Below are positions 24,919 to 61,915 of a DNA stretch of 64,000 nucleotides, in pieces (the first letter of the stretch is position 1; each line of letters opens with the position of its first letter). This DNA is from Spongilla lacustris (Eukaryota > Porifera > Demospongiae > Spongillida > Spongillidae): positions 4,026,757 to 4,090,756 of the forward strand of contig OX442419.1 of NCBI GenBank assembly GCA_949361645.1. The letters are read 5' to 3'. Both the position numbers and the translations under genes were made by a program. The notes beneath the pieces were generated by a model, which saw only the letters and a program-made list of their open reading frames with translations, made no database searches and was not told the DNA's origin.

Positions 24919-25968
24919 CTACGTGCGCTCAAATTCTGATGCTTGTGCTCCCTTGCGTTTCGCCTCATCCATAGGTACTGTGCCACTTGTACCATAATTA
25001 CTAGTCCAGTATAGGGCGGAATCCGCACTATGTCTGTCATTGGTGGAGAGGGTAGGATGGCTCGATTCCTGCCCGCCTTTTCTTGTGCCCGTTGAAACCA
25101 AAATGATGTGCACGACAAGTGCCAATCCGGCTGCAAGGCTCCAGGCGGAGGTGCAGAAGGCGTTGGCCACCGTAAGACCGTCGTTACGCGTATTCATCGC
25201 ATCGTATACGCGATCCACGAGAGGAGGGATGGACAGTAGGCACCACGTGACCGGATAGACCAGCAGCGGGAGGAGCTGCTTCAGAGCTGACTGTTGGAGC
25301 GGCCTCTTCATGACCAACAGCGCCTCTTTCCTGCCCTTCCTTTCCACGAACGTCCTGCATGACAGCACGGCCACCATCACCACAACAACGACGCAGTCGA
25401 GGAAGAGAAGGACGATCGAGGGGACGTACCACAGTGCAAACTGCTCGATTACGCCTGCTTTATTTTCCTCTGAGCCGCTTGTGCAAGTTTGTATCCAGCA
25501 CCACGACCCGGCTAAACCGTAGGAGCCCGTAGTGAATGGAATGATAGAAACAACTGCCGGTACCAGCAGTGCCGTCAAAACGTACACAAGTTCAAACTTC
25601 TTGAGGTTCTTGTAGAAGACGGCGTAGGAGAAGAGGTGAAAGGTCACCCAGAAGGTGAAGCACAGCTTCATCCAAACTAAGTATTGAATGGTGAAAGCAA
25701 CGGCGATACAGGCTGTTGGCGGGTAGTCGCTGCTGGGGGGATAGTACAGCAATGACAGCGCCTCTAAGACGCAAGCCGCCCCGCTTAACAGCCCGGTTAC
25801 CACATGGTAGAGCGCTAGTCGGTAGGCGAAGAGTTCGTAGAGTCTCTTAGCCACGACGAGGATAACGGCAAGCAGGCAAATCAGCACGGCCGCACCCCCG
25901 GTCCCACTCAACACTATAAGGGCTGGCTTATAAACAGCCCTCAGTGTTGCGTTGCACGGATTGTCCAT
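24919..25968 (-). CDS. Seven-transmembrane receptor, cAMP-receptor/GPR157-like, paralogue 2
   Basis: A single-exon gene for 349 aa. I start at the Met at 25,968 (MDNPCNATLR), because residues upstream in frame look non-coding and the paralogue begins at the equivalent point. The N-terminus has a glycosylation site (NAT, residue 6). Hydrophobic segments lie at about 13-41, 46-75, 86-116, 126-146, 180-205, 229-255 and 264-293. Cys 87 and Cys 157 (SWCWI) are the likely disulfide pair. Intracellular loop 3 is basic (ERKGRKEALLVMKRP). The tail is hydrophilic and Ser/Thr rich. It is convergent with the 16.6-kb paralogue, 7.2 kb apart. The ligand is unknown. Confidence 0.88.
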   Translation of the reverse strand: MDNPCNATLRAVYKPALIVLSGTGGAAVLICLLAVILVVAKRLYELFAYRLALYHVVTGLLSGAACVLEALSLLYYPPSSDYPPTACIAVAFTIQYLVWMKLCFTFWVTFHLFSYAVFYKNLKKFELVYVLTALLVPAVVSIIPFTTGSYGLAGSWCWIQTCTSGSEENKAGVIEQFALWYVPSIVLLFLDCVVVVVMVAVLSCRTFVERKGRKEALLVMKRPLQQSALKQLLPLLVYPVTWCLLSIPPLVDRVYDAMNTRNDGLTVANAFCTSAWSLAAGLALVVHIILVSTGTRKGGQESSHPTLSTNDRHSADSALYWTSNYGTSGTVPMDEAKRKGAQASEFERT

Positions 25969-26043
25969 GTACAGCAATTGGCACACCCTCGGGCACACCC
26001 ACTTGGCATCACGTGCATGAACATACATGATATGTACGTTCAT

Positions 26044-33908: not shown

Positions 33909-34458
33909 GCGTGTGATGATGGAAGGCGGTGTGTGTGTTAGTTGTGTTGTATGAGTGTTTGTGGATGAGACTTTGGGATAAGTGCAGTTGTGTATGGGAG
34001 GTTGCATGTATGTAGGTGCCTAAGAGGAATGTGCAATGACAGGAGGTGGTCGATTGAAGTGCTGTGTGATTTGTGAGTGGGTGTTATATATACGTATGTG
34101 TATATGTATATCTGTGTGGTGGAATGTGTGATTGTTGTTTGGGATGATATGAATGCAGATAAGAGTGCTGTGTTGGATGTTTGGTCAATAGACCACTTGT
34201 ATATATACACTTCTTCCAGTTACATGCATTGCATGGCTCAATGCTGTTGCCAGTGCGATGATGGAAGGCGGTGTGCGCGTGTTAGTTGTATTGTATGAGT
34301 GTTTGTGGATGAGACTTTGGGATGGTGTATGGAGGATAAGCATGCATGTATGTAGGTGTAAGTTGGAGGTGGTCGATTGAAGTGTTGTGTGTTTCACATG
34401 TGAGTGGGGGATTATGCTATATAAGTACATGTATGTAATAATATATATCTATTATATA
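33909..34458. repeat. Tandem duplication, about 345-bp period, interrupted by the giant element
   Basis: GATGATGGAAGGCGGTGTG and the following bases (GAGTGTTTGTGGATGAGACT, then TTGGGAT) occur at 33,915 and 34,257. The second unit runs into the mariner insertion at 34,459 and resumes after 49,603 (GTGTGATTG..TGGGATGA..GGATGATATGA), matching unit 1 at about 34,125-34,155. GGCTCAATGCTGTTGCCA at 34,236 recurs at 49,675. Confidence 0.75.
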
Positions 34459-35865
34459 CAGGGTGATCCAAAAGTCGCGCAAAATGTTTGAATTGCTATA
34501 ACTCCAGAACTGAACATTGTAAAATTATGCTGTTTGAAGTAAAAATCATGCCAATGACTAACTTAAAGCTATTAATATGTAGTTATTAAAATTTATTATT
34601 AAGTTTATTTAATACATGCCAATGCATTGATCAACAAGCAACAACCCCCAGAGAGTATGTAAAAATTAATTTTTATAGCTATTAATATTACTTATCACGT
34701 GATCTACCTTATCTAAGGTTTTTGCGGGAAAACCCCCGCTCAAAGTCAAGCTATAGCATATAAATCACCAATATCGCGGTAAATCTATGCAAAGGAGCAT
34801 CCAATAATCGTGCCAATAAACAGTTTACCATCTTGCCTGGTGCCTAACGAAGCCAAATGTTTAAAACGAAATTTATTAATTTCCGTTAATTAGACTTGTG
34901 AAAAGCAGAGTTTGAATTATTAGACCCGTAGAGGAAGTCATACTCAAATTGTGGAACTAATAATTGCATTGATTCGTGTTTTGGAAGCAGAGTTTAAAGC
35001 TGTTGAAGTTAGGCAGCGCTTACGCATGCGCGGTATCCATATAAAATAATGTTAGGTCCGAGAACGAGAGTTCCTCACGTGAACATAATTGAATAATTAT
35101 CGCCTTCACGTGATACATTGCCACAACACAGCCCCACCCTCCTAAACTTTGCATCTCTGCAACATCATATTGCGGGCACTTTGCATTCACCTATCCGAAT
35201 AGTCATCGTGGCCCATGCAGATGCAGGAGCAAATATTGTAAAACCCAGTGTTTTTACCATCAATGACCCCAAGCCGTTCAATAAGTTGTTTCCCAGGCAG
35301 TGCTTCAGTGCTTTAAAAACACAGCATCTTTATAGAACCCAAATCGTGCCAAACCGCGCCGTTTGTAACAGCAGTAACGGTTTTAATAACAAACCAAACT
35401 CGGTGGGCATCATTTCAATTCGATCCATCGATCCGGCAAGTACGCGCGTACAGCACTGCAGCTACACGGGTGCATGTAACCACGTAGAGCAGAACGTGAT
35501 TCATCAAAGACGCTATGGTATACGCGAATAGGTAAGCATCGTTTCAGAATGTAAGCCTACGTACTACGCACGACGCATTCGTTTCCTGTTACAGACAGTA
35601 TTCAGAGAAAACAGCGTCGTTTAGAGCAGAACCAACCCAACAACATGCAACTCGCTGAAACAGCTCGCACTGTAACGTCCCACCACGCTAAGGTACATGT
35701 ACGTGTGCCTCAGGGGAGCAAGAGCCAAAGTAGACTCCCAATGGTGCACACATTATTAATTAAGAGATGACCCAATGACATTAAAGGGGGTTCCAATGGT
35801 TCACACATTAGAGGGGTCCCAATGGTCTGGACATCAAAGGAAATAAGAGGGTCTCTATCTCTTAA
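34459..35865 (+). repeat. Left arm tip of the giant element
   Basis: The outer 1.4 kb. It is the inverse of 48,197-49,603, with only isolated mismatches seen (for example near 34,962 and in the TTCACACATT phrase near 35,800). A 137-codon open frame at 35,118-35,531 is present in both arms but has no ATG (it opens at TTG). A CCAATGGT..CACA minisatellite lies at about 35,740-35,830. Confidence 0.9.
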
Positions 35866-38800
35866 GTAGGACAGTGTCCAGTGTCACAGAATGTGCATAG
35901 GGTGACTGCAGATGGAGCGAATGAGCTTCCACTGCATGCCTTGTTGACATGTCTACAGGAATGGTAGGGGTGATTAGAAAAATTCTTAGCTGATACCTCA
36001 CTAGTGAGAAATGTGTGGGGAACACCCCTGGTGTATTTTTGGTGTAATTTCTGGGACTCTATCAAGTGTCACAGAATGCATAGGGTGACTGCAGATGGAG
36101 CGCATGTGCTTCCACTGCATACCTTGTTGACACATGTATAGGGAGGGTAGGGGTGGTTAGAAAATGTTTAGCTGAGTCTCCACTAGTGAGACATGTGTGT
36201 GGTACACCACTGTTGAGTTGGTGTAATTTCTGGGACACTGTCAAGTGCCACATAATGCATTGGGTGACTGCAGAATGGAGCAAATTTGTTTGCCCACTGG
36301 ATGCCTTGTTGAGCCATGTACAGGAAGGGTAGGGGTGGTTAGAAAAATGTTTAGCTGAGTCCCCACTAGTGAGACATGTGTGATTAACACCCCTGGTGTA
36401 TGTTTGTAATTTCTGGGACTCTATCAAGTGTCACAGAATGCATAGGATGACTGCAGATGGAGCGAATGCACTTCCACTGCATGCCTTGTGGGACACATGT
36501 ATAGGGAGGGTAGGGGTGAATAGAAAAATGTTTAGCTGAGTCGCCACTAGTAAAACATGTGTGTGGTACACCAATGTTGAGTTGGTGTAATTTCTGGGAC
36601 ACTGTCAAGTGTCACAGAATGCATTGGGTGACTGCAGATGTGCTTCCACTGCATGCCTTGTTGACACATTTACAGGAAGGGTAGTGGTTGTTTGAAAAAT
36701 GTTTAGCTGAGTCCACACTAGTGAGACATGTGAGGGGAAGACCCCTGGTGTATTTTTGTAAATTCTGGGACACTATCAAGTGTCACAGAATGCATAGAGT
36801 GACTGCAGAATGGAGCGAATTGTGTCCAGTGCATACCTTGTTAAGCCATGTACAGGAAGGGTAGGGGTGGTTAGAAAAATGTTTAGCTGAGTCCCCACTA
36901 GTGAGACATGTGTGGGGAAGACCCCTGGTGTGTTTTTGTAAATTCTGGGACTCTATCAAGTGTCACAGAATGCATAGGATGACTGCAGATGGAGTGAATG
37001 CACGTCCACTGCATGCCTTGTTGACACATGTATAGGGAGGGTAGGGGTGGTTAGAAAATGTTTAGCTGAGTCCCCACTAGTGAGACATGTGTGTGGTACA
37101 CCACTGTTGAGTTGGTGTAATTTCTGGGACACTGTCAAGTGCCACATAATGCATTGGGTGACTGCAGAATGGAGCAAATGTATTTCCACTGGATGCCTTG
37201 TTGAGCCATGTACAGGAAGGTTAGGGGTGGTTAGAAAAATGTTTAGTTGAGTCCCCACTAGTGTCACAGAATGCATTGGGTGACTGCAGAATGGAGTGAA
37301 TGTGTTTCCACTGCATGCCTTGTTGACACATGTACATGAAGGGTAGCGGTGGTAAGAAAAATGTTTAGCTGAGTCCCTACTAGTGAGACATATGTGGGGA
37401 ACACAACTGGTGTATTTTTGTAATTTCTTGGACTTTATCAAGTGTCACAGAATGCATAGGGTGATTGCAGATGAAGTGAATGTGCTTCCACTGCATGCCT
37501 TGTTGACACATGTATAGGGAGGGTAGGGGTGATTGGGAAAATGTTTAGTTGAGTCCCCACTAGTAAGTCAAGTGTGGGATACAACACTGTTGAGTTGGGG
37601 TAATTTCTGGGACACTGTGAAGTGTCACAGAATGCATTGGGTGACTGCAGAATGGAGTGAATGTGCTTCCACTGCATGCCTTGTTGACACATGTATAGGG
37701 AGGGTAGGAGTGGTTAGAAAAATGTTTAGTTGAGTTCCCACTAGTAAGACAGGTGTGTGATACACCACTGTTGAGTTGGTGTACTTTCTGGGACACTGTC
37801 AAGGCATTGGGTGACTGCAACATGGAGCAAATGTGTTTCCACTGCATGCCTTGTTGAGCCATGTACAGGAAGGGTAGGGGTGGTAAGAAAATGTTTAGCT
37901 GAGTCCTTAATCTGTGGGGAACACCCCTTGTGTATTTTTGTAATTTCTGGGACTCTATCAAGTGTCACAGATTGAATAGGGAGACTGCAGATGTGCTTCC
38001 ACTGCATGCCTTGTTGACACATTTACAGGAAGGGTAGGGGTGGTTAGAAAAATGTTTAGCTGAGTCCCCACTAGTGAGACATGTGTGATGAACACCCCTG
38101 GTGTATGTTTGTAATTTCTGGGACACTATCAAGTGTCACAGAATGCATAGAGTGACTGCAGAATGGAGTGAATGGGTGGTTAGAAAAATGTTTAGCTGAG
38201 TCCCCACTAGTGAGACATGTGTGGGGAAGACCCCTGGTGTGTTTTTGTAAATTCTGGGACTCTATCAAGTGTTACAGAATGCATAGGATGACTGCAGATG
38301 GAGTGAATGCACTTCCACTGCATGCCTTGTTGACACATGTATAGGGAGGGTAGGGGTGGTTAGAAAAATGTTTAGCTGAGTCCGCACTAGTGAGACATGT
38401 GTGTGGTACACCAATGTTGAGTTGGTGTAATTTCTGAGACACTGTCAAGTGTCACAGAATGCATTGGGTGACTGCAGATGTGCTTCCACTGCATGCCTTG
38501 TTGACACATTTACAGGAAGGGTAGGGGTGGTTAGAAAAATGTTAAGCTGAGTCCCCACTAGTGAGACATGTGTGATGAACACCCCTGGTGTATGTTTGTA
38601 ATTTCTGGGACTCTATCAAGTGTCACAGAATGCATAGGTTGACTGCAGAGGGAGCGAATGTGCTTCCACTGCATGCCTTGTTGCCACATGTATAGGGAGG
38701 GTAGGGGTGAATAGAAAAATGTTTAGCTGAGTCCCCACTAGTGAAACATGTGTGTGGTACACCAATTTTCAGTTGGTGTAATTTCTGGAACACTGTCAAG

Positions 38801-40980
38801 TGTCACAGGATGCATTGGGTGACTGCAGATGTGCTTCCACTGCATGCCTTGTTGACAAATTTACAGGAAGGGTAGGGGTGGTTAGAAAAATGTTTAGCTG
38901 AGTCCCCACTAGTGAGACATGTGTGATGAACACCCCTGGTGTATGTTTGTAATTTCTGGGACACTATCAAGTGTCACAGAATGCATAGAGTGACTGCAGA
39001 ATGGAGCGAATGTGTGTCCAGTACATACCTAGTTAAGCCATGTACAGGAAGGATAGGGGTGGTTAGAAGAATGTTTAGCTGAGTCCCCACTAGTGAGACA
39101 TGTGTGGGGAAGACCCCTGGTGTATGTTTGTAATTTCTGGGACTCTATCAAGTGTCACAGAATGAATTGGGTGACTGCAGATGTGCTTCCACTGCATGCC
39201 TTGTTGACACATTTACAGGAAGGGTAGGGGTGGTTAGAAAAATGTTAAGCTGAGTCCCCACTACTGAGACATGTGTGATTAACACCCCTGGTGTATGTTT
39301 GTAATTTCTGGGACTCTATCAAGTGTCACAGAATGCATAGGTTGACTGCAGAGGGAGCGAATGTGCTTCCACTGCATGCCTTGTCGCCACATGTATAGGG
39401 AGGGTAGGGGTGAATAGAAAAATGTTTAGCTGAGTCCCCACTAGTGACACATGTGTGTGGTACACCAATGTTCAGTTGGTGTAATTTCTGGAACACTGTC
39501 AAGTGTCACTGGATGCATTGGGTGACTGTAGATGTGCTTCCACTGCATGCCTTGTTGACACATTTACAGGAAGGGTAGGGGTGGTTAGAATAATGTTTAG
39601 CTGAGTCCCCACTAGTGAGACATGTGTGATGAACACCCCTGGTGTATGTTTGTAATTTCTGGGACACTATCAAGTGTCACAGAATGCATAGAGTGACTGC
39701 AGATGGAGTGAATGCACTTCCACTGCATGCCTTGTTGACACATGTATAGGGAGGGTAGGGGTGGTTAGAAAAATGTTTAGCTGAGTCCGCACTAGTGAGA
39801 CATGTGTGTGGTACACCAATGTTGAGTTGGTGTAATTTCTGGGACACTGTCAAGTGTCACAGAATGCATTGGGTGACTGCAGATGTGCTTCCACTGCATG
39901 CCTTGTTGACACATTTACAGGAAGGGTAGGGGTGGTTAGAAAAATGTTAAGCTGAGTCCCCACTAGTGAGACATGTGTGGGGAAGACCCCTGGTGTGTTT
40001 TTGTAAATTCTGGGACTCTATCAAGTGTTACAGAATGCATAGGATGACTGCAGATGGAGTGAATGCACTTCCACTGCATGCCTTGTTGACACATGTATAG
40101 GGAGGGTAGGGGTGGTTAGAAAAATGTTTAGCTGAGTCCGCACTAGTGAGACATGTGTGTGGTACACCAATGTTGAGTTGGTGTAATTTCTGGGACACTG
40201 TCAAGTGTCACAGAATGCATTGGGTGACTGCAGATGTGCTTCCACTGCATGCCTTGTTGACACATTTACAGGAAGGGTAGGGGTGGTTAGAAAAATGTTA
40301 AGCTGAGTCCCCACTAGTGAGACATGTGTGATGAACACCCCTGGTGTATGTTTGTAATTTCTGGGACACTATCAAGTGTCACAGAATGCATAGAGTGATA
40401 GCAGGTATGCTTCCACTGCATGCCTTGTTGACACATGTACAGGAAGGGTAGGGGTGGTTAGAAAAATGTTAAGCTGAGTCCCCACTAGTAAGACAAGTGT
40501 GTGATACACCACTGTTGAGTTGGTGTACTTTCTGGGACACTGTCAAGACATTGGGTGACTGCAGAATGGAGGAAATGTGTTTCCACTGCATGCCTTGTTG
40601 AGCCATGTATAGGAAGGGTAGGGGTTGTTTGAAAAATGTTTAGCTGAGTCCCCACTAGTGAGACATGTGTGGGGAAGACCCCTGGTGTGTTTTTGTAATT
40701 TCTGGGACTTTATCAAGTGTCACAGAATGCATAGGGTGACTGCAGATGGAGCGAATGTGCTTCCACTACATGCCTTGTTGACACATGTATAGGAATGGTA
40801 GGGGTTGTTTGAAAAATGCTTACCTGAGTTCTTACTAGTGAGACATGTGTTTGCTACACCCCTGTTTAGTTGGTGTAATTTTTGGGTCACTATCATGTGT
40901 CATAGAATGCATTGGGTGACTGCAGAATGGAGTGAATGTGTTTCCACTGCATGCTTTGTTGACACATTTATATAAAGGGA
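35866..40980 (+). repeat. Left arm satellite array, about 28 monomers of about 180 bp
   Basis: A typical monomer runs GGGACACTGTCAAGTGTCAC, AGAATGCAT, GTGACTGCAGA, CCACTGCATGCCTTGTTGAC, GGAAGGGTAGGGGTGGTTAG, TTTAGCTGAGTCCCCACTAG and then a hairpin. Two hairpin types exist: type A, ACACCA...TGGTGT with a 9-base loop, and type B, ACACC..GGTGT with a 3-base loop. They alternate in many places, giving dimers of about 355 bp. Minus-strand open frames here (GDSAKHFSNHPYP style) follow the repeat and are not genes. Confidence 0.92.
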
Positions 40981-40998
40981 AAAGTACAGAACCAGTTC

Positions 40999-41480
40999 AG
41001 CACTGCAGCTACACGGGTGCATGTAACCACATAGAGCAGAGCATTATTGATCATAGACGGTATGTTGTACATGAATAAGTAATCATCAGTTCAGAATGTA
41101 AGCCCCGCGCATTTGCTTCCTGTTACAGACATTATTAAGAGAAAACAGCGTCACTTCGAGCAGAACCAGCCCAACAACATGCAACTCACTGAAACAGCTC
41201 GCACTGTAACGTCCCACCACGCTAAGGTACGTGTGCCTCAGGGGAGCAAGGGCCTAATAGGGGTCCCAATGGTGTACACATAAGAGGGGTCCCAATGGTG
41301 CACACATAAGAGGGGTCTCAATGGTGCACACATAAGAGGGGTCCCAATGGTGGACACATAAGAGAGGTCCTGTTCACGCACACATTAAAAGTTTTAATGC
41401 TGTACACAAAAGGGGGGTCCCACTGTTGTGTGTTCCCTATAGTGCAAACATTAGAGGGGTCCCAATGGTACACAAAATGG
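40999..41480 (+). repeat. Diverged internal copy of arm segment with 26-bp minisatellite
   Basis: 40,999-41,250 is a direct, diverged copy of 35,449-35,725 (CAGCACTGCAGCTACACGGG, then AACATGCAACTC.CTGAAACA and CACGCTAAGGTAC). It is followed, as in the arm tip, by AGGGGTCCCAATGGTGCACA units of about 26 bp, here about eight. Thus the same segment brackets the left array on both sides. Confidence 0.85.
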
Positions 41481-43310
41481 GGTCCCAATGGTGATATACA
41501 TGTACATTGTAGGTCACTCTGCAAACTAAATGAGGGATATCTTTACCCATTCTTACTACCAGCTATGCAGAGAGCTTCCTCTCCATTTGGTCACGTGTCT
41601 CTAAATTGCTGCTAAATTGATAGGTAAAAAATTTTGCCTTACACTTAAAAGTATGTCCCATGTGACATACACTGCCTTTTCTTTCACTACCAGTAAGGCA
41701 TTTAGATGCCTCACTTGGGACTTCTCATACATTTGCACCATTGGTACCCCTCTTATTTGTAATGACTTTGTTATCTTGTAATTTGGCGGTGGAAAAAGTA
41801 TAAGGTGAGTATGGAGGCAGAGTAGCAGAACAGATTGGAGACAGAGAGATGAAGATATTCCTTCCAGTATATTTATACATGAGTGGTTTACATGTGTGTG
41901 TATGTGTGTGTGTTTGTGTTTTCTTAAGACTAGTATTTTGTTTCTACTCAGTCTTCACGCTTCATGTGTGCCGGCACAGTTGTTACTTGCAGCTAAAGAG
42001 GCAAACATTGAGACTTTGGAGAGGTAAATTAAAAAAGAAACAAGACTTCTGGTAAAGGTATGTCTCCTCAAGTACATAAGTATGTGTCTGCATGTCTTTA
42101 TGTTCTCCACACTAGGACCGTTCTTCTTTGGATGAAGTAACAACTGGAGATACCGATTAATCCTTTCCTACTGCATAATGGAAATTTGTCTTAGTGACAT
42201 GACTATCTGTTTTTGTTTTGTGTAGTGTATTTATTGCAAATATCAATGTTTAGAAGCTTGATGTGGTAATATGTATCGTGTGTACAAAAAAGCATAGAAG
42301 AGAGTGTGTGTGTGTGTGTGTAGCTATTTCACTATTAATCAACTAAACTCATGGTCCAGGAAACAGAACTGCCACTCTCTGTTTTGGAAGCTGAGAGACC
42401 TCTTTTCAACTGCCTAAAATAGGTACCTTTCTCTCTATCACTGAGGCAGATGACACAGTGGAACCTTTCTGTAACTGAGACTTCTGTGCAACAGAGGAAT
42501 TACTCCCCACTGCTTGTGCAACCATAGGACCTTTATCTGTGCATATGCATGTTGGACAGAGGAACCTTTCTTTCTGCTTTCATGAATATGTGTGAGATAG
42601 GATGGGTAGGAGGATTGTGGGAGGTTGCAGGTGTCATAATCAATGCAAATTATTCATAGAGGTCATGGGGAGGTGTTTTAAGCTCCTCTTACTGCACTAC
42701 TAGACATCAAAGGAATACAGAAACATAACATTCTGTTTGCTTTCTCATGCTCCTATTGGCCTGCAGGTACATGTGATACAGTTCATAAGGTCAGATACTC
42801 CCAAGAAAAAGGCTCTTCTACACCACACACATGCACTCCCAAAGGATACATGTAACAGCCAGCAACTTCATTCGTTCACACTCCTATCCCATCCTCACCA
42901 TACATCTATCTGTCACCTTTCTACAACTTTATCTCCCTGTCTCCCATCTCCCTATGCTAAGAAACTACATTTAGGTCTGGTGAGTTATTCTATGCTCCCA
43001 TGCACGTGACCACACAAGTGTGTGTGCAGTTAAACCTAACCATGTTCTCACAATTACACAAATAAAAAAGGTACTGTTAAAAATAGACTGAATTTTAAAA
43101 TCACAGTCTCACATATTTACATGTACATATGCAAACACACACAATAATACATTGACACTAATACAGATAACATATAAGATAATATGGTACCTATGTTAAT
43201 ATCCTCCATCAGATTGAATACATTTTGATGTAGGACTAAAAAGCAATAAACCTCAATATCACGTGCCTGTGAGAAAGTACAGGAAATAAGGATCAATTAG
43301 CTGTAGTGCA
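41481..43310. other. Central region left of the transposase
   Basis: Single-copy within the window. Short coding-like patches on the plus strand (about 41,513-41,605 KLNEGYLYPFLLPAMQ; about 41,951-42,025 CVPAQLLLAAKEANIETLE after a CTCAG acceptor-like site) suggest captured or decayed exons, but intron phases do not join. TG runs lie near 41,893 and 42,306. Confidence 0.4.
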
Positions 43311-43422
43311 TTTTGGCGGGAACCAATAGAAACACTCCACTGTGATTGGGCGGGAACCAATAGAATCACTCCAGCACTGTGATTGGCGGGAACCAATAGA
43401 ATTGCTCCACTGCACTATAAAA
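43311..43422 (+). promoter_or_regulatory. Transposase promoter: three E2F/CCAAT modules and TATA
   Basis: Three copies of a GGCGGGAACCAATAGAA module lie at 43,311-43,331, 43,345-43,365 and 43,381-43,401. The first reads TTTTGGCGGGAACCAAT, which contains an E2F-type site fused to a CCAAT box. A TATA box (TATAAAA, 43,416-43,422) follows, 46 bp before the ATG. E2F plus NF-Y sites are typical of genes expressed in dividing cells; regulation in this organism is inference. Confidence 0.75.
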
Positions 43423-43467
43423 GCACTGCAGGAAAAAAAACTACATACTGAAGTCATTTTGTACAGC

Positions 43468-44541
43468 ATGTCTGGAGCAAAGCTTACAAAGGATCAGAGA
43501 GTGACTATTGTGATGCTTTATGCAGAAACGAGAAATGCAAGTGAAACAGTTAGACAGTTCAAGGTGAAGTATCCTGGACTTGGCACTCTAAGCCCATCCA
43601 CTGTGCTAAGGACAGTGAAACGATTCTATGACACTGGTGGCACAGATGATCGTAAGCGTTCAGGGAGGAGGAGAAGTGGAAGAAGTCCAGTCAACATACA
43701 GGCTATAGATAGGAAAATCAATGATGACCCTGAGTTATCATTGAGGCGAATATCATGTGCCACAGATATACCATATAGCACAGTACGAACAATTGTCAGA
43801 AAAGACTTGAAGATGAAAGCTTACAGGAGCAGAATGGTTCAGGAACTGAAAGAAGGAGACCACGAGAAAAGAGTGGAATGGGCAGAGGAATGGTTGGAGA
43901 AGGTCGAGTACAACAATGAATATGAGGAGAATATTTTGTGGACGGATGAGGCAATATTTAAATTAAATGGTAAAGTAAACATCCATAATGCCATCACATG
44001 GGCCAAAACCAATCCTCGAAAAACAGTTGACAGGGCATATAAAAAGGAAGGCATCATGGTCTGGTGTGGACTCCTTAATGATGAAATCATAGGACCATAC
44101 TTTTTTGAACAGGGCACAGTGACAGGAAAGTCATATCTAGGAATGTTAAAACGCCTTTGGCCATATCTCCAATCATCTCTTGATGAGGACAAAATTGAGG
44201 AAATAATATTTCAACAAGATGGAGCACCATCTCACTATTTTCATGAAGTCACAGAATGGCTAAACAACACCTTCGAGGACAGATGGATGGGCCGTGGAGG
44301 GCCAATTCCATGGCCTGCAAGAAGTCCGGATCTGACACCTTTGGATTTTTGGCTTTGGGGTTACCTGAAAGGAATTGTGTACGCACAGAGCCCCAAAACT
44401 ATCCCGGACCTCAAACAAGCCATATCAGATGCCATCAGTGATATACCAAACCAAATGGTTAAAAATGCTACTAAATGTGTAACTAAAAGAGCACAAAAGA
44501 TTGTTGAAGTTTTAGGACTACATATAGAAAACTACTTTTAG
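43468..44541 (+). CDS. Mariner-family transposase, DD41D, 357 aa
   Basis: Intact single frame starting at MSGAKLTKDQ; in-frame residues further upstream (from a GTG at 43,342) overlap the promoter and TATA and are rejected. An N-terminal paired helix-turn-helix region covers about 5-115, with a basic linker RKRSGRRRSGR at 63-72 between the two subdomains. The catalytic triad is WTDEA (Asp 160), QQDGAPSH (Asp 251) and SPDLTPLDFWLWG (Asp 293); 41 residues separate the second and third Asp, giving DD41D, the spacing described for the rosa group. The WPARSPDLTPLDF motif is classic for mariner relatives. It should cut and paste at TA sites in the nucleus by binding the element ends. No stop, frameshift or missing catalytic residue is seen, so it may be active. 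Confidence 0.93.
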   Translation: MSGAKLTKDQRVTIVMLYAETRNASETVRQFKVKYPGLGTLSPSTVLRTVKRFYDTGGTDDRKRSGRRRSGRSPVNIQAIDRKINDDPELSLRRISCATDIPYSTVRTIVRKDLKMKAYRSRMVQELKEGDHEKRVEWAEEWLEKVEYNNEYEENILWTDEAIFKLNGKVNIHNAITWAKTNPRKTVDRAYKKEGIMVWCGLLNDEIIGPYFFEQGTVTGKSYLGMLKRLWPYLQSSLDEDKIEEIIFQQDGAPSHYFHEVTEWLNNTFEDRWMGRGGPIPWPARSPDLTPLDFWLWGYLKGIVYAQSPKTIPDLKQAISDAISDIPNQMVKNATKCVTKRAQKIVEVLGLHIENYF

Positions 44542-45431
44542 AACTTATTTGTGCAAGCTATTATGTCAATATTGTAATCCAAGTGCATATTATTGTAACT
44601 GCGAGTTAATTTGTATTAACAGTACAGTGATCCATAGTCACTTGCCATTCAAACTTGCACAACCATAACCCTCTCTCCCAGAACAAGTTACAGTAGCTCC
44701 CTCTGTCAATGTGCATTGCCCTATTGTGGGTGGAGCTCATTATAACTACATAGAATTCCACAAATGCACATAACTCCCTTCATATTTGCCTTTTTATCAT
44801 GTTATTTCTAAAAACTGTACATACAGGTCTTTACACACAAAAACACAAAATGGGAGTCATGTGACCTTGACAATTCTTTATCATGTAGTACACTTGAAGA
44901 TGGAGGTAAAGGATTGGTATATCCAGTTCTTTATTCCTCCATCACTGGGGACAGTGCATGGTCCAGGCCATAAAGACAAGTGCATAGAGACGTACTTGAG
45001 GCAGCACAACTCTACTCTGCAGGTACATTATGTACACCACATACCACTGATTCCTGAAATAGAAGGGGTAGCATAAGGCTCAAGCACTCAGTACTAGTGT
45101 AAAAAATGAGCACTAATGCACAAACACGTTAGAACCTTCACTGTAAGTTAGACACAGACACCATTATCCACTATTTAGACAGTTAGACCCCTTTGTACAA
45201 AGCTGACAATTTATACCAGTCATGGTGAGAGACAACCCATTCATACCAGAGAGGCAGAGAGACCTTTATCCACACAGCAACACCTACGTCATAATGAGAT
45301 AGAGAGATTTCTCTCAACCAGGACACACAAGCCACTTTTAGCAGTCAGAAAGAGAGAAAAATATCTATCAGTAACAGTCTGAAATACCCCACTGTTCCTG
45401 TGACTGAGAACCAGACACAATCCACAAACAC
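44542..45431. other. Central region right of the transposase
   Basis: One coding-like patch at about 44,897-45,022 (MEVKDWYIQFF, PGHKDKCIETYLRQHNSTLQ) ends exactly at a GTACAT donor-like site. Otherwise AT-rich without recognised features. It may be a captured exon; no family recognised. Confidence 0.4.
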
Positions 45432-48196
45432 ACCCCTAGTGTTCAACACCCATGTTTGACTACTGGGGACCGAGCCAGTAGGGACTCAGCTAAACAGTTT
45501 TCAAACCACCCATACCCTTCCTATAGATCTGTCAACAAGGCATGCAGTGGAAGCACATTCGAACCATTCTGCAGTCACCCAATGCATTATGTGACACTTG
45601 ACAGTGTCCCAGAAATTACACCAACTCAACAGTGGTGTACCACACACATGTTTCACTAGTGGGGACTCAGCTAAACATTTTTCTAACCACCCCTACCCTC
45701 CCCATACATGTGTCAACATGGCATGCAGTGGAAGCACAACTGCAGTCACCTTATGCATTCTGTGACATTTGATAGAGTCCCAGAAATTACAAAAATACAC
45801 AAGGGGTGTTCCCACACATTAAGGACTCCGCTAAACATTTTTCTTACCACCCCTACCCTTCCTGTACATGGCTCAACAAGGCATGCAGTGGAAGCATATC
45901 TGCAATCACCCTATGCATTCTGTGACACTTGATAGTGCCCCAGAAATTACAAAAATACACCAGGGGTGTTCCCCACACATGTCTCACTAGTGGGGACTCA
46001 GCTAAACACTTTTCTAACCACCCCTACCCTTCCTGTACATGGCTCAACAAGGCATACAGTGGAAACACATTTGCTCCATTCTGCAGTCACCCAATGCCTT
46101 GACAGTGTCCCAGAAAGTACACCAACTCAACAGTGGTGTATCACACACCTGTCTTACTAGTGGGGACTCAACTAAACATTTTTCTAACCACTCCTACCCT
46201 CCCTATACATGTGTCAACAAGGCATGCAGTGGAAGCACATTCACTCCATTCTGCAGTCACCCAATGCATTCTGTGACACTTCACAGTGTCCCAGAAATTA
46301 CCCCAACTCAACAGTGTTGTATCCCACACTTGACTTACTAGTGGGGACTCAACTAAACATTTTCCCAACCACCCCTACCCTCCCTATACATGTGTCAACA
46401 AGGCATGCAGTGGAAGCACATTCACTTCATCTGCAATCACCCTATGCATTCTGTGACACTTGATAAAGTCCAAGAAATTACAAAAATACACCAGTTGTGT
46501 TCCCCACATATGTCTCACTAGTAGGGACTCAGCTAAACATTTTTCTACCCACCCCTACCCTTCCTGTAAATGTGTCAACAAGGTATGCAGTGGAAGCACA
46601 TCTGCAGTCACCCTATACATTCTGTGACACTTGATAGCATCCCAGAAACTACAAAAATACACAATGGCTGTTCCCCACACATTAAGGACTCAGCTAAACA
46701 TTTTTCTTACCACCGCTACCCTTCATGTACATGTGTCAACAAGGCATGCAGTGGAAACACATTCACTCCATTCTGCAGTCACCCAATGCATTCTGTGACA
46801 CTAGTGGGGACTCAACTAAACATTTTTCTAACCACCCCTAACCTTCCTGTACATGGCTCAACAAGGCATCCAGTGGAAATACATTTGCTCCATTCTGCAG
46901 TCACCCAATGCATTATGTGGCACTTGACAGTGTCCCAGAAATTACACCAACTCAACAGTGGTGTACCACACACATGTCTCACTAGTGGGGACTCAGCTAA
47001 ACATTTTCTAACCACCCCTACCCTCCCTATACATGTGTCAACAAGGCATGCAGTGGACGTGCATTCACTCCATCTGCAGTCATCCTATGCATTCTGTGAC
47101 ACTTGATAGAGTCCCAGAATTTACAAAAACACACCAGGGGTCTTCCCCACACATGTCTCACTAGTGGGGACTCAGCTAAACATTTTTCTAACCACCCCTA
47201 CCCTTCCTGTACATGGCTTAACAAGGTATGCACTGGACACAATTCGCTCCATTCTGCAGTCACTCTATGCATTCTGTGACACTTGATAGTGTCCCAGAAT
47301 TTACAAAAATACACCAGGGGTCTTCCCCTCACATGTCTCACTAGTGTGGACTCAGCTAAACATTTTTCAAACAACCACTACCCTTCCTGTAAATGTGTCA
47401 ACAAGGCATGCAGTGGAAGCACATCTGCAGTCACCCAATGCATTCTGTGACACTTGACAGTGTCCCAGAAATTACACCAACTCAACATTGGTGTACCACA
47501 CACATGTTTTACTAGTGGTGACTCAGCTAAACATTTTTCTATTCACCCCTACCCTCCCTATACATGTGTCCCACAAGGCATGCAGTGGAAGTGCATTCGC
47601 TCCATCTGCAGTCATCCTATGCATTCTGTGACACTTGATAGAGTCCCAGAAATTACAAACATACACCAGGGGTGTTAATCACACATGTCTCACTAGTGGG
47701 GACTCAGCTAAACATTTTTCTAACCACCCCTACCCTTCCTGTACATGGCTCAACAAGGCATCCAGTGGGCAAACAAATTTGCTCCATTCTGCAGTCACCC
47801 AATGCATTATGTGGCACTTGACAGTGTCCCAGAAATTACACCAACTCAACAGTGGTGTACCACACACATGTCTCACTAGTGGAGACTCAGCTAAACATTT
47901 TCTAACCACCCCTACCCTCCCTATACATGTGTCAACAAGGTATGCAGTGGAAGCACATGCGCTCCATCTGCAGTCACCCTATGCATTCTGTGACACTTGA
48001 TAGAGTCCCAGAAATTACACCAAAAATACACCAGGGGTGTTCCCCACACATTTCTCACTAGTGAGGTATCAGCTAAGAATTTTTCTAATCACCCCTACCA
48101 TTCCTGTAGACATGTCAACAAGGCATGCAGTGGAAGCTCATTCGCTCCATCTGCAGTCACCCTATGCACATTCTGTGACACTGGACACTGTCCTAC
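45432..48196 (-). repeat. Right arm satellite array, about 15 monomers
   Basis: The same monomers of about 180 bp as the left array, in reverse orientation. From 48,196 down to about 46,812 it matches the left array base for base in register; between about 46,812 and 46,470 it has one extra monomer-sized block (161 bp). It is about half the length of the left array. Confidence 0.92.
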
Positions 48197-49603
48197 TTAA
48201 GAGATAGAGACCCTCTTATTTCCTTTGATGTCCAGACCATTGGGACCCCTCTAATGGGTGAACCATTGGAACCCCCTTTAATGTCATTGGGTCATCTCTT
48301 AATTAATAATGTGTGCACCATTGGGAGTCTACTTTGGCTCTTGCTCCCCTGAGGCACACGTACATGTACCTTAGCGTCGTGGGACGTTACAGTGCGAGCT
48401 GTTTCAGCGAGTTGCATGTTGTTGGGTTGGTTCTGCTCTAAACGACGCTGTTTTCTCTGAATACTGTCTGTAACAGGAAACGAATGCGTCGTGCGTAGTA
48501 CGTAGGCTTACATTCTGAAACGATGCTTACCTATTCGCGTATACCATAGCGTCTTTGATGAATCACGTTCTGCTCTACGTGGTTACATGCACCCGTGTAG
48601 CTGCAGTGCTGTACGCGCGTACTTGCCGGATCGATGGATCGAATTGAAATGATGCCCACCGAGTTTGGTTTGTTATTAAAACCGTTACTGCTGTTACAAA
48701 CGGCGCGGTTTGGCACGATTTGGGTTCTATAAAGATGCTGTGTTTTTAAAGCACTGAAGCACTGCCTGGGAAACAACTTATTGAACGGCTTGGGGTCATT
48801 GATGGTAAAAACACTGGGTTTTACAATATTTGCTCCTGCATCTGCATGGGCCACGATGACTATTCGGATAGGTGAATGCAAAGTGCCCGCAATATGATGT
48901 TGCAGAGATGCAAAGTTTAGGAGGGTGGGGCTGTGTTGTGGCAATGTATCACGTGAAGGCGATAATTATTCAATTATGTTCACGTGAGGAACTCTCGTTC
49001 TCGGACCTAACATTATTTTATATGGATACCGCGCATGCGTAAGCGCTGCCTAACTTCAACAGCTTTAAACTCTGCTTCCAAAACACGAATCAATGCAATT
49101 GTTAGTTCCACAATTTGAGTATGACTTCCTCTACGGGTCTAATAATTCAAACTCTGCTTTTCACAAGTCTAATTAACGGAAATTAATAAATTTCGTTTTA
49201 AACATTTGGCTTCGTTAGGCACCAGGCAAGATGGTAAACTGTTTATTGGCACGATTATTGGATGCTCCTTTGCATAGATTTACCGCGATATTGGTGATTT
49301 ATATGCTATAGCTTGACTTTGAGCGGGGGTTTTCCCGCAAAAACCTTAGATAAGGTAGATCACGTGATAAGTAATATTAATAGCTATAAAAATTAATTTT
49401 TACATACTCTCTGGGGGTTGTTGCTTGTTGATCAATGCATTGGCATGTATTAAATAAACTTAATAATAAATTTTAATAACTACATATTAATAGCTTTAAG
49501 TTAGTCATTGGCATGATTTTTACTTCAAACAGCATAATTTTACAATGTTCAGTTCTGGAGTTATAGCAATTCAAACATTTTGCGCGACTTTTGGATCACC
49601 CTG
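48197..49603 (-). repeat. Right arm tip of the giant element
   Basis: Inverse of 34,459-35,865. The 137-codon frame is unchanged in translation between the arms. Ends GGATCACCCTG at the TA target. Confidence 0.9.
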
Positions 49604-49605
49604 TA

Positions 49606-53140: not shown

Positions 53141-53886
53141 TGTGGACGTGTGTAGAGGTGAAGTGTGTTCACATGTGTAGAAGTGAAGTGTGTCCACGTG
53201 TGTAGAGGTGAAGTGTCCACGTGTGTAGAAGTGAAGTGTCCACGTGTGTAGAGGTGAAGTGTGTCCACGTGCGTAGAAGGGAAGTGTGTCCACGTGTGTA
53301 GAGGTGAAGTGTCCATGTGTGTAGAGGTGAAGTGTGTCCACGTGTGTAGAAGTGAAGTGTGTCCACGTGTGTAGAGGTGAAGCGTCCACGTGTGTAGAGG
53401 TGAAGTGTGTCCATGTGTAGAAGAGAAGTGTGTCCATGTGTGTAGAGGTGAAGTGTCCACGTGTGTAGAAGAGAAGTGTGTCCACGTGTGTAGAAGTGGT
53501 GTGTCCACGTGTGTAGAGATGAAGTGTCCACGTGTGTAGAAGTGAAGTGTCCACGTGTGTAGAGATGAAGTGTGTCCACGTGTGTAGAAGGGAAGTGTGT
53601 CCATGTGTGTAGAGGTGAAGTTTCCACGTGTGTAGAAGTGAAGTGTGTCCACGTGTGTAGAAGTGAAGTGTGTCCACGTGTGTAGAGGTGAAGTTTTCAC
53701 GTGTGTAGAAGGGGTGTGTCCACGTGTGTAGAGGTGAAGTGTCCACGTGTGTAGAAGTGAAGTGTGTCCACGTGTGTAGAGGTGAAGTGTGTCCACGTGT
53801 GTAGAGGTGAAGTTTCCACGTGTGTAGAAGTGAAGTGTGTCCACATCTGTACAGGTGAAGTGTCCACATGTGTAGAGGTGAAGTGT
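53141..53886. repeat. E-box minisatellite, about 30 units of 23-27 bp
   Basis: The unit is GTCCACGTGTGTAGA(A/G)GTGAAGTGT with GT-dinucleotide length variation. Most units contain the palindrome CACGTG. Long minus-strand frames (THVDTSPLHTWTHF style) are products of the repeat. Confidence 0.93.
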
Positions 53887-58574: not shown

Positions 58575-61500
58575 GCTATGTTCCTTAACCCTTCACACTC
58601 TTACAAAGACCACACCAACAGGGCATGTTGCGGCTAAGCTGATTAACCCTTCACACTCATACAATGACCCACAGGACAATTTTTGCGGCCAATTGTTTAA
58701 CCCTTCAAAGAGGGCACTATTTGCTGCTAAGCCGATTAACCCTTCACACTGTTACCAAGACCACACCCACAGGGCACTTTTTGCAGCTAAGCGGATTAAC
58801 TCTTCACACTGTTACAAAGACCACACCCAAAGAGGGCAGTATTTGCTGCTAAGCCGATTAACCCTTCACACCGTTACAAAGACCACACCTACAGGACACT
58901 TTTGCGGCTAATTATTTAACCCTTCACACTCTACAAAGCCACACCCACAGGGCACCTTTTGCGGCTAAGTTGATTAACCCTTCAAAGAGGACACTTTTTG
59001 CAGAAAAGTTCATTAACCCTTCACTCTCTTACATATACCACACCCACAGGGCACTTTTTGCGGCCAATTGTTTAACCCTTCAAAGAGGGCACTATTTGCT
59101 GCTAAGCCGATTAACCCTTCACACTGTTACCAAGACCACACCCACAGGGCACTTTTTGCGGCTAAGCAGATTAACTCTTCACACTGTTACAAAGACCACA
59201 CCCAAAGAGGGCAGTATTTGCTGCTAAGCCGATTAACCCTTCACACTGTTACAAAGACCACACCTACAGGACACTTTTGCGGCTAAGTTGATTAACCCAA
59301 AGAGGACACTTTTTGCAGAAAGTTCATTAACCCTTCACTCTCTTACATATACCACACCCACAGGGCACTTTTTGCGGCTAAATTGATTAACCCTTCAAAC
59401 TCTTACATAGACCACACCCACAGGACAATTTTTGCGGCCAATTGTTTAACCCTTCAAAGAGGGCACTATTTGCTGCTAAGCCGATTAACCCTTCACACTG
59501 TTACCAAGACCACACCCACAGGGCACTTTTTGCGGCTAAGCGGATTAACCCTTCACACCGTTACAAAGACCACACCCAAAGAGGGCAGTATTTGCTGCTA
59601 AGCCGATTAACCCTTCACACCGTTACAAAGACCACACCTACAGGACACTTTTGCGGCTTATTATTTAACCCTTCACACTCTACAAAGCCACACCCACAGG
59701 GCACCTTTTGCGGCTAAGTTGATTAACCCTTCAAAGAGGACACTTTTTGCAGAAAGTTCATTAACCCTTCACTCTCTTACATATACCACACCCACAGGGC
59801 ACTTTTTGCGGCTAAATTGATTAACCCTTCAAACTCTTACATAGACCACACCCACAGGACAATTTTTGTGGCCAATTGTTTAACCCTTCAAAGAGGGCAC
59901 TATTTGCTGCTAAGCCGATTAACCCTTCACACTGTTACCAAGACCACACCCACAGGGCACTTTTTGCGGCTAAGCGGATTAACCCTTCACACCGTTACAA
60001 AGACCACACCCAAAGAGGGCAGTATTTGCTGCTAAGCCGATTAACCCTTCACACCGTTACAAAGACCACACCTACAGGACACTTTTGCGGCTTATTATTT
60101 AACCCTTCACACTCTACAAAGCCACACCCACAGGGCACCTTTTGCGGCTAAGTTGATTAACCCTTCAAAGAGGACACTTTTTGAAGAAAAGTTCATTAAC
60201 CCTTCACTCTCTTACATATACCACACCCACAGGGCACTAAATTGATTAACCCTTCAAACTCTTACATAGACCACACCCACAGGACAATTTTTGCGGCCAA
60301 TTGTTTAACCCTTCAAAGAGGGCACTATTTGCTGCTAAGTCGATTAACCCTTCACACTCTACAAAGATCACTCACTTTTTGCAGAAATGTTCATTAACCC
60401 TTCACTCTCTTACATATACCACACCCACAGGGCACTTTTTGCGGCTAAATTGATTAACCCTTCAAACTCTTACATAGACCACACCCACAGGACAATTTTT
60501 GCGGCCAATTGTTTAACCCTTCAAAGAGGGCACTATTTGCTGCTAAGCCGATTAACCCTTCACACTGTTACCAAGACCACACCCACAGGGCACTTTTTGC
60601 GGCTAAGCGGATTAACCCTTCACACCGTTACAAAGACCACACCCAAAGAGGGCAGTATTTGCTGCTAAGCCGATTAACCCTTCACACCGTTACAAAGACC
60701 ACACCTACAGGACACTTTTGCGGCTTATTATTTAACCCTTCACACTCTACAAAGCCACACCCACAGGGCACCTTTTGCGGCTAAGTTGATTAACCCTTCA
60801 AAGAGGACACTTTTTGAAGAAAAGTTCATTAACCCTTCACTCTCTTACATATACCACACCCACAGGGCACTAAATTGATTAACCCTTCAAACTCTTACAT
60901 AGACCACACCCACAGGACAATTTTTGCGGCCAATTGTTTAACCCTTCAAAGAGGGCACTATTTGCTGCTAAGTCGATTAACCCTTCACACTCTACAAAGA
61001 TCACTCACTTTTTGCAGAAATGTTCATTAACCCTTCACTCTCTTACATATACCACACCCACAGGGCACTTTTTGCGGCTAAATTGATTAACCCTTCAAAC
61101 TCTTACATAGACCACACCCACAGGACAATTTTTGCGGCCAATTGTTTAACCCTTCAAAGAGGGCACTATTTGCTGCTAAGCCGATTAACCCTTCACACTG
61201 TTACCAAGACCACACCCACAGGGCACTTTTTGCGGCTAAGCGGATTAACCCTTCACACCGTTACAAAGACCACACCCAAAGAGGGCAGTATTTGCTGCTA
61301 AGCCGATTAACCCTTCACACCGTTACAAAGACCACACCTACAGGACACTTTTGCGGCTTATTATTTAACCCTTCACACTCTACAAAGCCACACCCACAGG
61401 GCACCTTTTGCGGCTAAGTTGATTAACCCTTCAAAGAGGACACTTTTTGAAGAAAAGTTCATTAACCCTTCACTCTCTTACATATACCACACCCACAGGG

Positions 61501-61915
61501 CACTAAATTGATTAACCCTTCAAACTCTTACATAGACCACACCCAAAGGACAATTTTTGCGGCTAATTGTTTAACCCTTCAAAGAGGGCAGTATTTGCTG
61601 CTAAGCCGATTAACCCTTCACACCGTTACAAAGACCACACCTACAGGACACTTTTGCGGCTAATTATTTCACTCTACAAAGCCACACCTACAGGGCACCT
61701 TTTGCGGCTAAGTTGATTAACCCTTCAAAGAGGACACTTTTTGCAGAAAAGTTCATTAACCCTACATATACCACACCCACAGGACACTTTTTGTGATTAA
61801 CCCTTCACACTTTTACAAAGACCACACCCACAGGGCACTTTTTGCTTAACCCTTCACACTCTTAAAAGACCACACCCACAGGGCTCCTTTTGCAGCTATG
61901 TTGATTAACCCATCA
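58575..61915. repeat. 58-60 bp satellite with higher-order units
   Basis: Monomers read TTAACCCTTCACACTGTTAC, AAAGACCACACCCACAGGGC, ACTTTTTGCGGCTAAG. A marker variant (TTGTTTAACCCTTCAAAGAG) starts higher-order units at 58,693, 59,068, 59,442, 59,876, 60,509 and 61,142, giving steps of 375, 374, 434, 633 and 633 bp. The two 633-bp units appear virtually identical. Overlapping open frames repeat with the same steps and are not genes. Each monomer carries a CCACACCC (KLF/Sp-type) box. Confidence 0.93.

What the first reader, a model, noticed from the sequence alone, without database searches (positions are those of the whole stretch)
34459..49603. A 15-kb mariner element with multi-kilobase inverted arms built largely of satellite DNA
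Seen directly: mariner-type ends, TA flanks, an intact transposase, and inverted arms made of a 1.4-kb tip plus a tandem array of monomers of about 180 bp. Tc1/mariner elements are normally 1.3-2.5 kb with short inverted repeats, so this architecture is far outside the usual range. It suggests a mobile unit that disperses satellite arrays, or arrays recruited as subterminal transposase-binding or heterochromatin platforms.
Basis: partly seen in the sequence, partly recalled or inferred. Interest (0 to 1): 0.9.

Follow-up and report, generated by a model that had tools for sequence, protein, structure and literature searches.

The report
Giant mariner transposon with satellite arms
A jumping gene of a normally tiny kind has grown about tenfold in this animal genome by building long mirror-image arms out of tandem repeats, and it has still spread to many places, so it can show how such DNA grows and moves.

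Summary
Positions 34459-49603 hold one complete element: TA on both sides, a 31-bp mariner-like end, 1.4-kb tips, inverted arrays of about 180-bp monomers (30 and 16), and one 357-aa transposase with DD41D spacing and a predicted Mos1-like fold. It belongs to a mobile family. The same genome holds 25 convergent end pairs of this family, 5.0-25.9 kb long, 22 with a transposase. A second family of 28 pairs, 11.5-17.5 kb, has nearly the same end but a 27-bp array not detectably related and no such transposase. A copy 6 Mb away differs at 15 bases in 15 kb; another copy sits in the centre of a palindromic repeat whose uninterrupted form is present. In most copies read, the two arms are almost identical for the outer 2-3.5 kb and then diverge, as expected if arms copy each other. 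Tips keep CpG (observed/expected about 1); arrays have almost none (0.06-0.14). The monomer does not look like a free satellite: 97 of 100 listed hits lie in or near these elements. It is a new architecture within a known superfamily; what the arrays do is unproven.

The parts
34457..34458 (.). TA target-site duplication, left
34459..34489 (+). 31-bp terminal inverted repeat, left
34459..35868 (+). left tip, about 1.41 kb, CpG-rich (o/e 0.96); ends in a degenerate 26-bp minisatellite at 35777-35840
35869..40979 (+). left tandem array, about 30 monomers of about 180 bp, CpG o/e 0.06
40995..41356 (+). diverged direct copy (80%) of the inner tip, at the inner edge of the left array
41255..41385 (+). 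26-bp minisatellite; in sister copy E08 related repeats fill about 8.5 kb of the core
43313..43412 (+). about three copies of a 34-36-bp repeat with E2F-like GGCGGGAA and CCAAT motifs (motif names recalled), upstream of a TATAAA at 43416
43468..44541 (+). transposase gene, 357 aa, D160-D251-D293 (41 residues between the last two), Mos1-like model
45477..48193 (-). right tandem array, about 16 monomers in inverted orientation, CpG o/e 0.06
48194..49603 (-). right tip, 3 mismatches in 1400 to the left tip
49573..49603 (-). 31-bp terminal inverted repeat, right
49604..49605 (.). TA target-site duplication, right

Best explanation
This is an autonomous-looking, recently spread DNA transposon of the Tc1/mariner superfamily, DD41D type, that has grown to 15-26 kb. 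Shown: one transposase gene, TA on both sides, many dispersed copies with their arms, near-identical siblings at different loci, and a second family with nearly the same end but no such transposase. Inferred: the transposase cuts at the conserved outer ends and moves the whole unit by cut-and-paste, and it also moves the second family in trans. Inferred from pattern: the tandem arrays grow inside the element by local tandem expansion, and the two arms repeatedly copy each other (gene conversion or template switching between inverted arms, perhaps during gap repair in S phase), which keeps the outer 2-3.5 kb the same on both sides. The array sequence itself is probably not what the transposase reads. 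If the arrays do anything, it is independent of their sequence, for example as a spacer or silenced platform between CpG-rich tips and the core.
Against: No movement was observed; activity is inferred from sequence. The junction letters of the uninterrupted palindromic repeats were not read. Mean monomer identity is the same within an arm, between arms and between elements (0.834-0.836), so homogenisation affects only the outer part; sibling copies are both counted there. Tips of E10 and E05 do not pair by element in the tree, and their arm profiles are irregular. Coding changes between five copies (E01, E03, E07, E09, E10) give no clear sign of purifying selection: synonymous/nonsynonymous from 4/0 to 4/11. 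The transposase is uninterrupted with its stop in place in 5 of 9 copies read. That family A moves family B is inferred from the shared end only.
Confidence: 0.87

Rival explanations
1. The arrays are functional and selected: a sequence-independent chromatin or spacing platform (for example silenced, nucleosome-length repeats) that protects or pairs the CpG-rich tips.
For: Two families with arrays not detectably related share the position, the arm size and the contrast between CpG-rich tips (o/e 0.94-1.03) and CpG-poor arrays (0.06-0.14). Among the ends listed no convergent pair under 5 kb was found, and 134 of 138 exact 22-mer ends are the two families' 31-mers. Monomers of 171/180 bp are of nucleosome length (comparison recalled).
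Against: Three derivatives without a transposase have TA flanks and an array on one side only, one of them with 3-4 monomers. CpG-rich stretches are common here: 16% of 1.4-kb stretches outside the element reach 0.96. In family B GpC is also low (0.19-0.20) and TpG is not raised, so its CpG poverty may be plain composition. No methylation or chromatin data.
Confidence: 0.3
2. The arrays are passive by-products: tandem repeats at the inner tip edge expand by slippage and unequal exchange, and the transposase tolerates the length.
For: A 26-bp minisatellite at that kind of edge also expanded to about 8.5 kb inside the core of E08. Monomer numbers differ between arms and copies, 14-46 in full-length copies.
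Against: It does not by itself explain why arrays sit in both arms of all nine full-length family A copies read and of both family B copies read, or the lack of small derivatives among the ends listed.
Confidence: 0.5
3. The arrays are accessory transposase-binding sites, as in Galileo or Sleeping Beauty.
For: [quoted passage not shown]
Against: End versus monomer alignment is no better than shuffles (p 0.23), the tip shares no 10-mer with the monomer consensus (three 9-mers are shared), and the monomer profile finds nothing in the family B arrays.
Confidence: 0.1
4. Assembly artefact.
For: B02 is embedded in a perfect inverted repeat that covers all 1,100 bp of flank read on both sides, which an assembler can create at palindromes. 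No reads were seen.
Against: 12 of the 14 copies read have flanks that are not mirrored (E10 is partly mirrored because its target is a palindrome), and 13 have TA on both sides. The uninterrupted target repeat exists.
Confidence: 0.05
5. A mobile unit that captured and spreads a pre-existing genomic satellite.
For: The arrays look like satellite DNA and go with the element.
Against: 97 of 100 listed monomer hits lie in or near elements; the other 3 form one cluster on C17.
Confidence: 0.05

Closest known systems
DD41D Tc1/mariner families: rosa (Crmar2-like) and DD41D/VS (VISITOR; full name recalled)
   Same: D-D-41-D triad and about 360-aa transposase; end of similar form (aphid rosa AAGGGTGTCTCAAAAAGAACGC, here CAGGGTGATCCAAAAGTCGCGC) (PMC5490172, passages; PMC8472432, passages)
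   Different: aphid rosa elements listed are 1.3 kb with TIRs of 27-32 bp, complete-ORF DD41D/VS of bees 1.0-2.3 kb; here 15-26 kb with multi-kilobase repetitive arms. Placement on a tree with named members was not done.
LTIR-like DD40/41D elements (Lsra) of aphids
   Same: DD41D transposase with long TIRs
   Different: 2.3-2.4 kb in all with TIRs of about 460 bp; no tandem array is mentioned in the passages seen
Galileo (P superfamily)
   Same: Long TIRs; in one subfamily internal tandem repeats of about 210 bp whose number differs between the two TIRs of a copy (PMC3573991, passages)
   Different: Other superfamily; TIRs up to about 1.26 kb with up to three repeats; its longest TIRs are in copies without the transposase ORF, whereas here transposase-bearing copies carry the arrays
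Tetris (foldback, suggested Mutator superfamily)
   Same: TIR = terminal domain + about 220-bp tandem repeats + inner domain; fibre-FISH indicated expanded internal arrays (PMC4079207, outline and part 1 of its Discussion)
   Different: 8-10-bp TSD, no transposase found, and its repeats also form free satellite arrays; here TA, own transposase, and no such free array among the hits listed
Sleeping Beauty / Bari elements
   Same: Tc1/mariner elements with secondary binding sites as repeats in bipartite TIRs (as stated in PMC3688188)
   Different: Sleeping Beauty integration is negatively affected by length (start of abstract of PMC4229213 in the listing); here the natural size is 15-26 kb

Membership tests
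Tc1/mariner superfamily | insertion at TA with TA duplication | tested here: met
   13 of 14 copies read; E03 lost the last bases of its right end
Tc1/mariner superfamily | terminal inverted repeats | tested here: met
   31-bp end on both sides, part of long arms
Tc1/mariner superfamily | HTH DNA-binding region plus DDE/D catalytic domain of the mariner fold | tested here: met
Tc1/mariner superfamily | usual length of 1-5 kb (customary, not defining) | tested here: not met
   15,145 bp here; pairs 5.0-25.9 kb; usual length from PMC5490172
DD41D (rosa / VISITOR) family | 41 residues between the second and third catalytic D | tested here: met
   D251 and D293 invariant in 52 sequences
DD41D (rosa / VISITOR) family | groups with named DD41D members on a tree | not tested
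   no named reference transposase was aligned
LTIR-like DD41D (Lsra) | about 2.3-kb element with TIRs of about 460 bp | tested here: not met
   inverted arm matches of 3.7-7.3 kb in the nine full-length copies
Foldback-type elements (Galileo, Tetris) | long TIRs with internal tandem repeats | tested here: met
Foldback-type elements (Galileo, Tetris) | P- or Mutator-type transposase and 7-10-bp target duplication | tested here: not met
   mariner-type transposase and TA; the expected values for Tetris from PMC4079207, for Galileo target length recalled
Free satellite DNA | large arrays outside mobile elements | tested here: inconclusive
   97 of 100 listed hits of one 34-mer in or near elements, 3 in one cluster elsewhere; 17 of 117 hits were not listed, and monomers that lack this 34-mer were not searched

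The most novel reading that the evidence does not exclude
A new kind of mariner in which multi-kilobase inverted tandem arrays are a maintained working part: CpG-rich tips that stay accessible are separated from a CpG-poor core by long arrays whose sequence does not matter, two families filled the same slot with unrelated repeats, and copying between the arms keeps both ends identical. Such elements would be natural factories of new satellite DNA.
Probability: 0.3. Interest if true: 0.9.

Novelty: new variant of a known kind. Interest (0 to 1): 0.8.

Why it matters
Mariner elements are textbook examples of tiny transposons, and in Sleeping Beauty integration falls with length. A family that has spread at 15-26 kb with one gene breaks that picture. 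It offers a natural system for asking how tandem repeats are born inside transposons, how inverted arms are kept identical, and how end accessibility is protected. Dozens of related copies with very different array lengths make these questions measurable.

Tried and rejected
A Pfam family search of the own genome with Transposase_1 rang nowhere, not even in controls, and says nothing. Viral or Polinton-type cargo: in the ten copies E01-E10 the ORFs of 130 codons or more are the transposase and repeat readings of the arrays or of the E08 minisatellite. Transposase-binding sites in the monomer: no signal. Common origin of the 26-bp minisatellite of family A and the 27-bp array of family B: suggestive alignment, p 0.09, not accepted; likewise 27-bp unit against monomer, p 0.09. 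Promoter-like block: E2F-like and CCAAT motifs in 8 of 9 transposase-bearing copies, E08 lacks them; kept as a remark only. A relative's whole locus in another species was not fetched. Literature searches for a giant or array-bearing Tc1/mariner: held no paper; some searches returned papers, of which at most 20 per call were listed, and I recognised none of that kind in the titles and abstract starts (open-access PMC library only, no preprints). The protein search for further DD41D families in this genome did not complete.

Counts and limits: the tip search scored 40 of 176 candidates, the transposase DNA search 40 of 87, the flank search 40 of 3,727; the 3-mismatch end search listed 100 of 159 hits, so older or smaller derivatives with changed ends may be missed. 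Pairing used a 30-kb limit and hand-copied coordinates; 12 ends of A and 20 of B stayed unpaired. Of the 25 A pairs 12 were read in full (E01-E10, D1, D2), of the 28 B pairs 2. In the monomer comparison 465 of 484 monomers were used; those with fewer than 140 letters were dropped, and copies E01/E02 and E05/E06/E07 were not compared with each other. The left tip of E04 was left out of the tip tree, and E04 out of the arm profiles and the CpG table.
Full report
What is there. Window 34459-49603 is one complete element of 15,145 bp with TA on both sides. From the left: a 31-bp end, a 1.41-kb tip, an array of about 30 monomers of about 180 bp, a 4.5-kb core, then 16 monomers and the tip in inverted orientation. 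The core holds one gene, a 357-aa transposase at 43468-44541; the only other ORF of 150 codons or more in the element is a reading of the right array. A diverged copy of the inner tip (80%) with a 26-bp minisatellite lies at the inner edge of the left array.

A dispersed family. The genome (248.6 Mb, 51 contigs) holds 57 exact copies of TA plus the first 28 bases, control 0, and 159 copies of the 31-base end with up to 3 mismatches, control 0, 58 of them exact. A one-base variant defines family B, 76 exact copies. Pairing convergent ends within 30 kb gives 25 family A pairs of 5.0-25.9 kb (median 17.4) and 28 family B pairs of 11.5-17.5 kb (median 16.2), together 0.35% of the genome; 12 ends of A and 20 of B stay unpaired. 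Of 30 transposase matches of 880 bases or more (40 of 87 candidates scored), 22 lie inside family A pairs, in 22 of the 25 pairs, 8 outside any pair, and none in a family B pair. The 22-base end occurs 138 times exactly, only 4 more than the exact 31-mers of the two families together (58 + 76). Among the ends listed no convergent pair is shorter than 5 kb.

Copies read in full. Ten family A copies (E01 = window, E02-E10), two short derivatives (D1 = L050, D2 = L051) and two family B copies were read. Thirteen of these 14 have TA on both sides; E03 has lost the last bases of its right end. All nine full-length family A copies have arrays of 14-46 monomers in both arms. E04 (6.4 kb), D1 (5.0 kb) and D2 (7.6 kb) lack the transposase and carry an array on one side, of 21, 3-4 and 27 monomers. 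The transposase is uninterrupted with its stop in place in 5 of 9 copies; E09 is open but reads past the usual stop, E05 and E06 stop at codon 307, E08 at 332. Synonymous against nonsynonymous differences between five of these copies range from 4/0 to 4/11 and show no clear purifying selection. E01 and E02, 6 Mb apart, differ by 15 mismatches and 2 gaps of 48 bases in all. E10 lies in the centre of a 398-bp palindromic repeat: the genome search with its two flanks joined matched end to end, within 2 bases, at each of the 40 places scored (of 3,727 candidates), up to 95% identical, and the left flanks of E03 and D2 match the same repeat. This shows insertion into a pre-existing sequence; the junction letters of the uninterrupted copies were not read.

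Family B. Its outer tip is 94% like that of family A in the first 50 bases and decays inwards, 65% over the whole aligned tip. Its arms consist of a 27-bp repeat that the family A monomer profile does not match; unit-to-monomer and unit-to-minisatellite alignments reach p 0.09 each, so a distant relation is not excluded. B02 is 16,972 bp with arms of over 7 kb and no transposase match. Thus the same slot is filled by different tandem repeats in two families with nearly the same end. Movement of B by the family A transposase is inferred from the shared end.

Arms copy each other. Tips of one copy differ by 0-9 of about 1,400 bases, tips of different groups by 6-26 (E04, whose left tip is rearranged, excepted). 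In the tip tree left and right arms are mixed (8 label changes) and both arms of E03, of E09 and of the E01/E02 group fall together with strong support; those of E08 are identical; E05 and E10 do not pair by element. In 7 of the 9 family A copies profiled the arms have 0-3 mismatches per 500 bases over the outer 2-3.5 kb, then rise within 0.5-1.5 kb to about 5-15%, at a different point in each group; E05 and E10 are irregular. B02 keeps 0-3 per 500 for 5.5 kb and then jumps to 92 of 471; B01 is diverged throughout. Among 465 monomers, 131 have a nearest relative over 99.5% identical: 95 in the opposite arm, 28 in the same arm, 8 in another element, although the opposite arm offers 5.7% of the candidates; 91 of 145 opposite-arm nearest relatives lie at the same rank counted from the tip (sibling copies are both counted). 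Mean identities within arms, between arms and between elements are equal (0.834-0.836), so inner monomers are not homogenised. The simplest reading is gene conversion or template switching between the inverted arms, with tracts that end inside the arrays. In B02 the mirror continues perfectly through all 1,100 bp of flank read on both sides, either a copying event that ran past the end or an assembly error.

CpG pattern. In nine family A copies (E04 left out) CpG observed/expected is 0.94-0.99 in tips, 0.06-0.08 in arrays and 0.14-0.27 in cores; in two family B copies 0.96 and 1.03 in tips, 0.14 and 0.10 in arrays. The rest of the window has 0.63; 1.4-kb stretches outside the element average 0.61 (sd 0.33), 16% of them reach 0.96 and none falls to 0.06, so the arrays are the unusual part. 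In E01 the step is sharp, from 1.33 at 1001-1250 to 0.08 at 1251-1500. Raised TpG and CpA in family A arrays (about 1.7) fit decay by methylation; in family B they are not raised and GpC is low too, so composition may suffice there. Methylation itself was not measured.

Not a genomic satellite, as far as seen. A 34-base monomer pattern has 117 exact hits; of the 100 listed, 74 lie inside family A pairs, 23 within 15 kb of a family A end or transposase, 3 in one cluster elsewhere, and none in a family B pair.

Comparison. The transposase has the DD41D spacing; aphid rosa elements are 1.3 kb with TIRs of 27-32 bp, the aphid LTIR group 2.3-2.4 kb with TIRs of about 460 bp (PMC5490172, passages), and DD41D/VS elements of bees with complete ORFs 1.0-2.3 kb (PMC8472432, passages). 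Long TIRs with tandem repeats are known from Galileo (P superfamily; PMC3573991 and PMC3688188, passages), with up to three repeats, and from Tetris (suggested Mutator; PMC4079207, outline and part of the Discussion), with alleles of three and four repeats and longer internal arrays indicated by fibre-FISH. Neither is Tc1/mariner. No paper on a Tc1/mariner with such arms was recognised in the searches named under Tried and rejected; the library lacks most subscription papers and preprints.

Mechanism. Shown by sequence: complete elements, TA on both sides, dispersal, shared ends, arm identity. Inferred: cut-and-paste by the encoded transposase; mobilisation of family B in trans; in-place growth of arrays; copying between arms. 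E2F-like and CCAAT motifs and a TATAAA upstream of the gene in 8 of 9 copies (motif names recalled) would suit expression in S phase, when a sister copy is available for gap repair; this is a guess. Whether arrays are passengers or a working part is open: the lack of short copies and the different arrays in two families favour a role; derivatives with few monomers and arrays of very different length favour tolerance.

Verdict. Observation confirmed. Interpretation partly supported: mobile family yes, dispersal of a genomic satellite not supported, binding sites unsupported, chromatin platform possible. New variant of a known kind.

Noticed in passing
L054-L057 (C1:8145940-8165111): Family B copy B02 lies at the centre of a perfect inverted repeat that covers all 1,100 bp of flank read on both sides: a copying event past the element end, or an assembly error at a palindrome.
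   Followed up: partly
L043-L045, element E08 (C3:2913564-2935545): A 26-bp minisatellite of the core has expanded to about 8.5 kb, giving open reading frames of up to 2,223 codons that are plain repeats.
   Followed up: partly
C22:2362893-2382541 flanks (L047, L049); query: A 398-bp palindromic TA-rich repeat with at least 40 copies (3,727 first-look candidates) holds E10; the left flanks of E03 and D2 match it too.
   Followed up: partly
window 43313-43421: Transposase promoter region with about three E2F-like/CCAAT repeats and a TATAAA box; such motifs are kept in 8 of 9 copies.
   Followed up: partly
C19:44730 (L008) and C16:368636 (L009): Two left ends on different contigs have the same 30-bp flank, perhaps a duplicated segment.
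   Followed up: no
window 58711-61893 and 53146-53886: Other tandem arrays (60-bp and 25-bp units) near the element; not compared with it in detail.
   Followed up: no
window 16639-17718 and 24919-26043: Two single-ORF genes that look like seven-helix receptors (a guess; no Pfam match for the first, PF05462 on some relatives); the only named relative found is from Ephydatia muelleri.
   Followed up: partly
window 9581-10495: Fragment of a Ty3-type reverse transcriptase and RNase H (Ty3 label is my reading of the Pfam domains).
   Followed up: no
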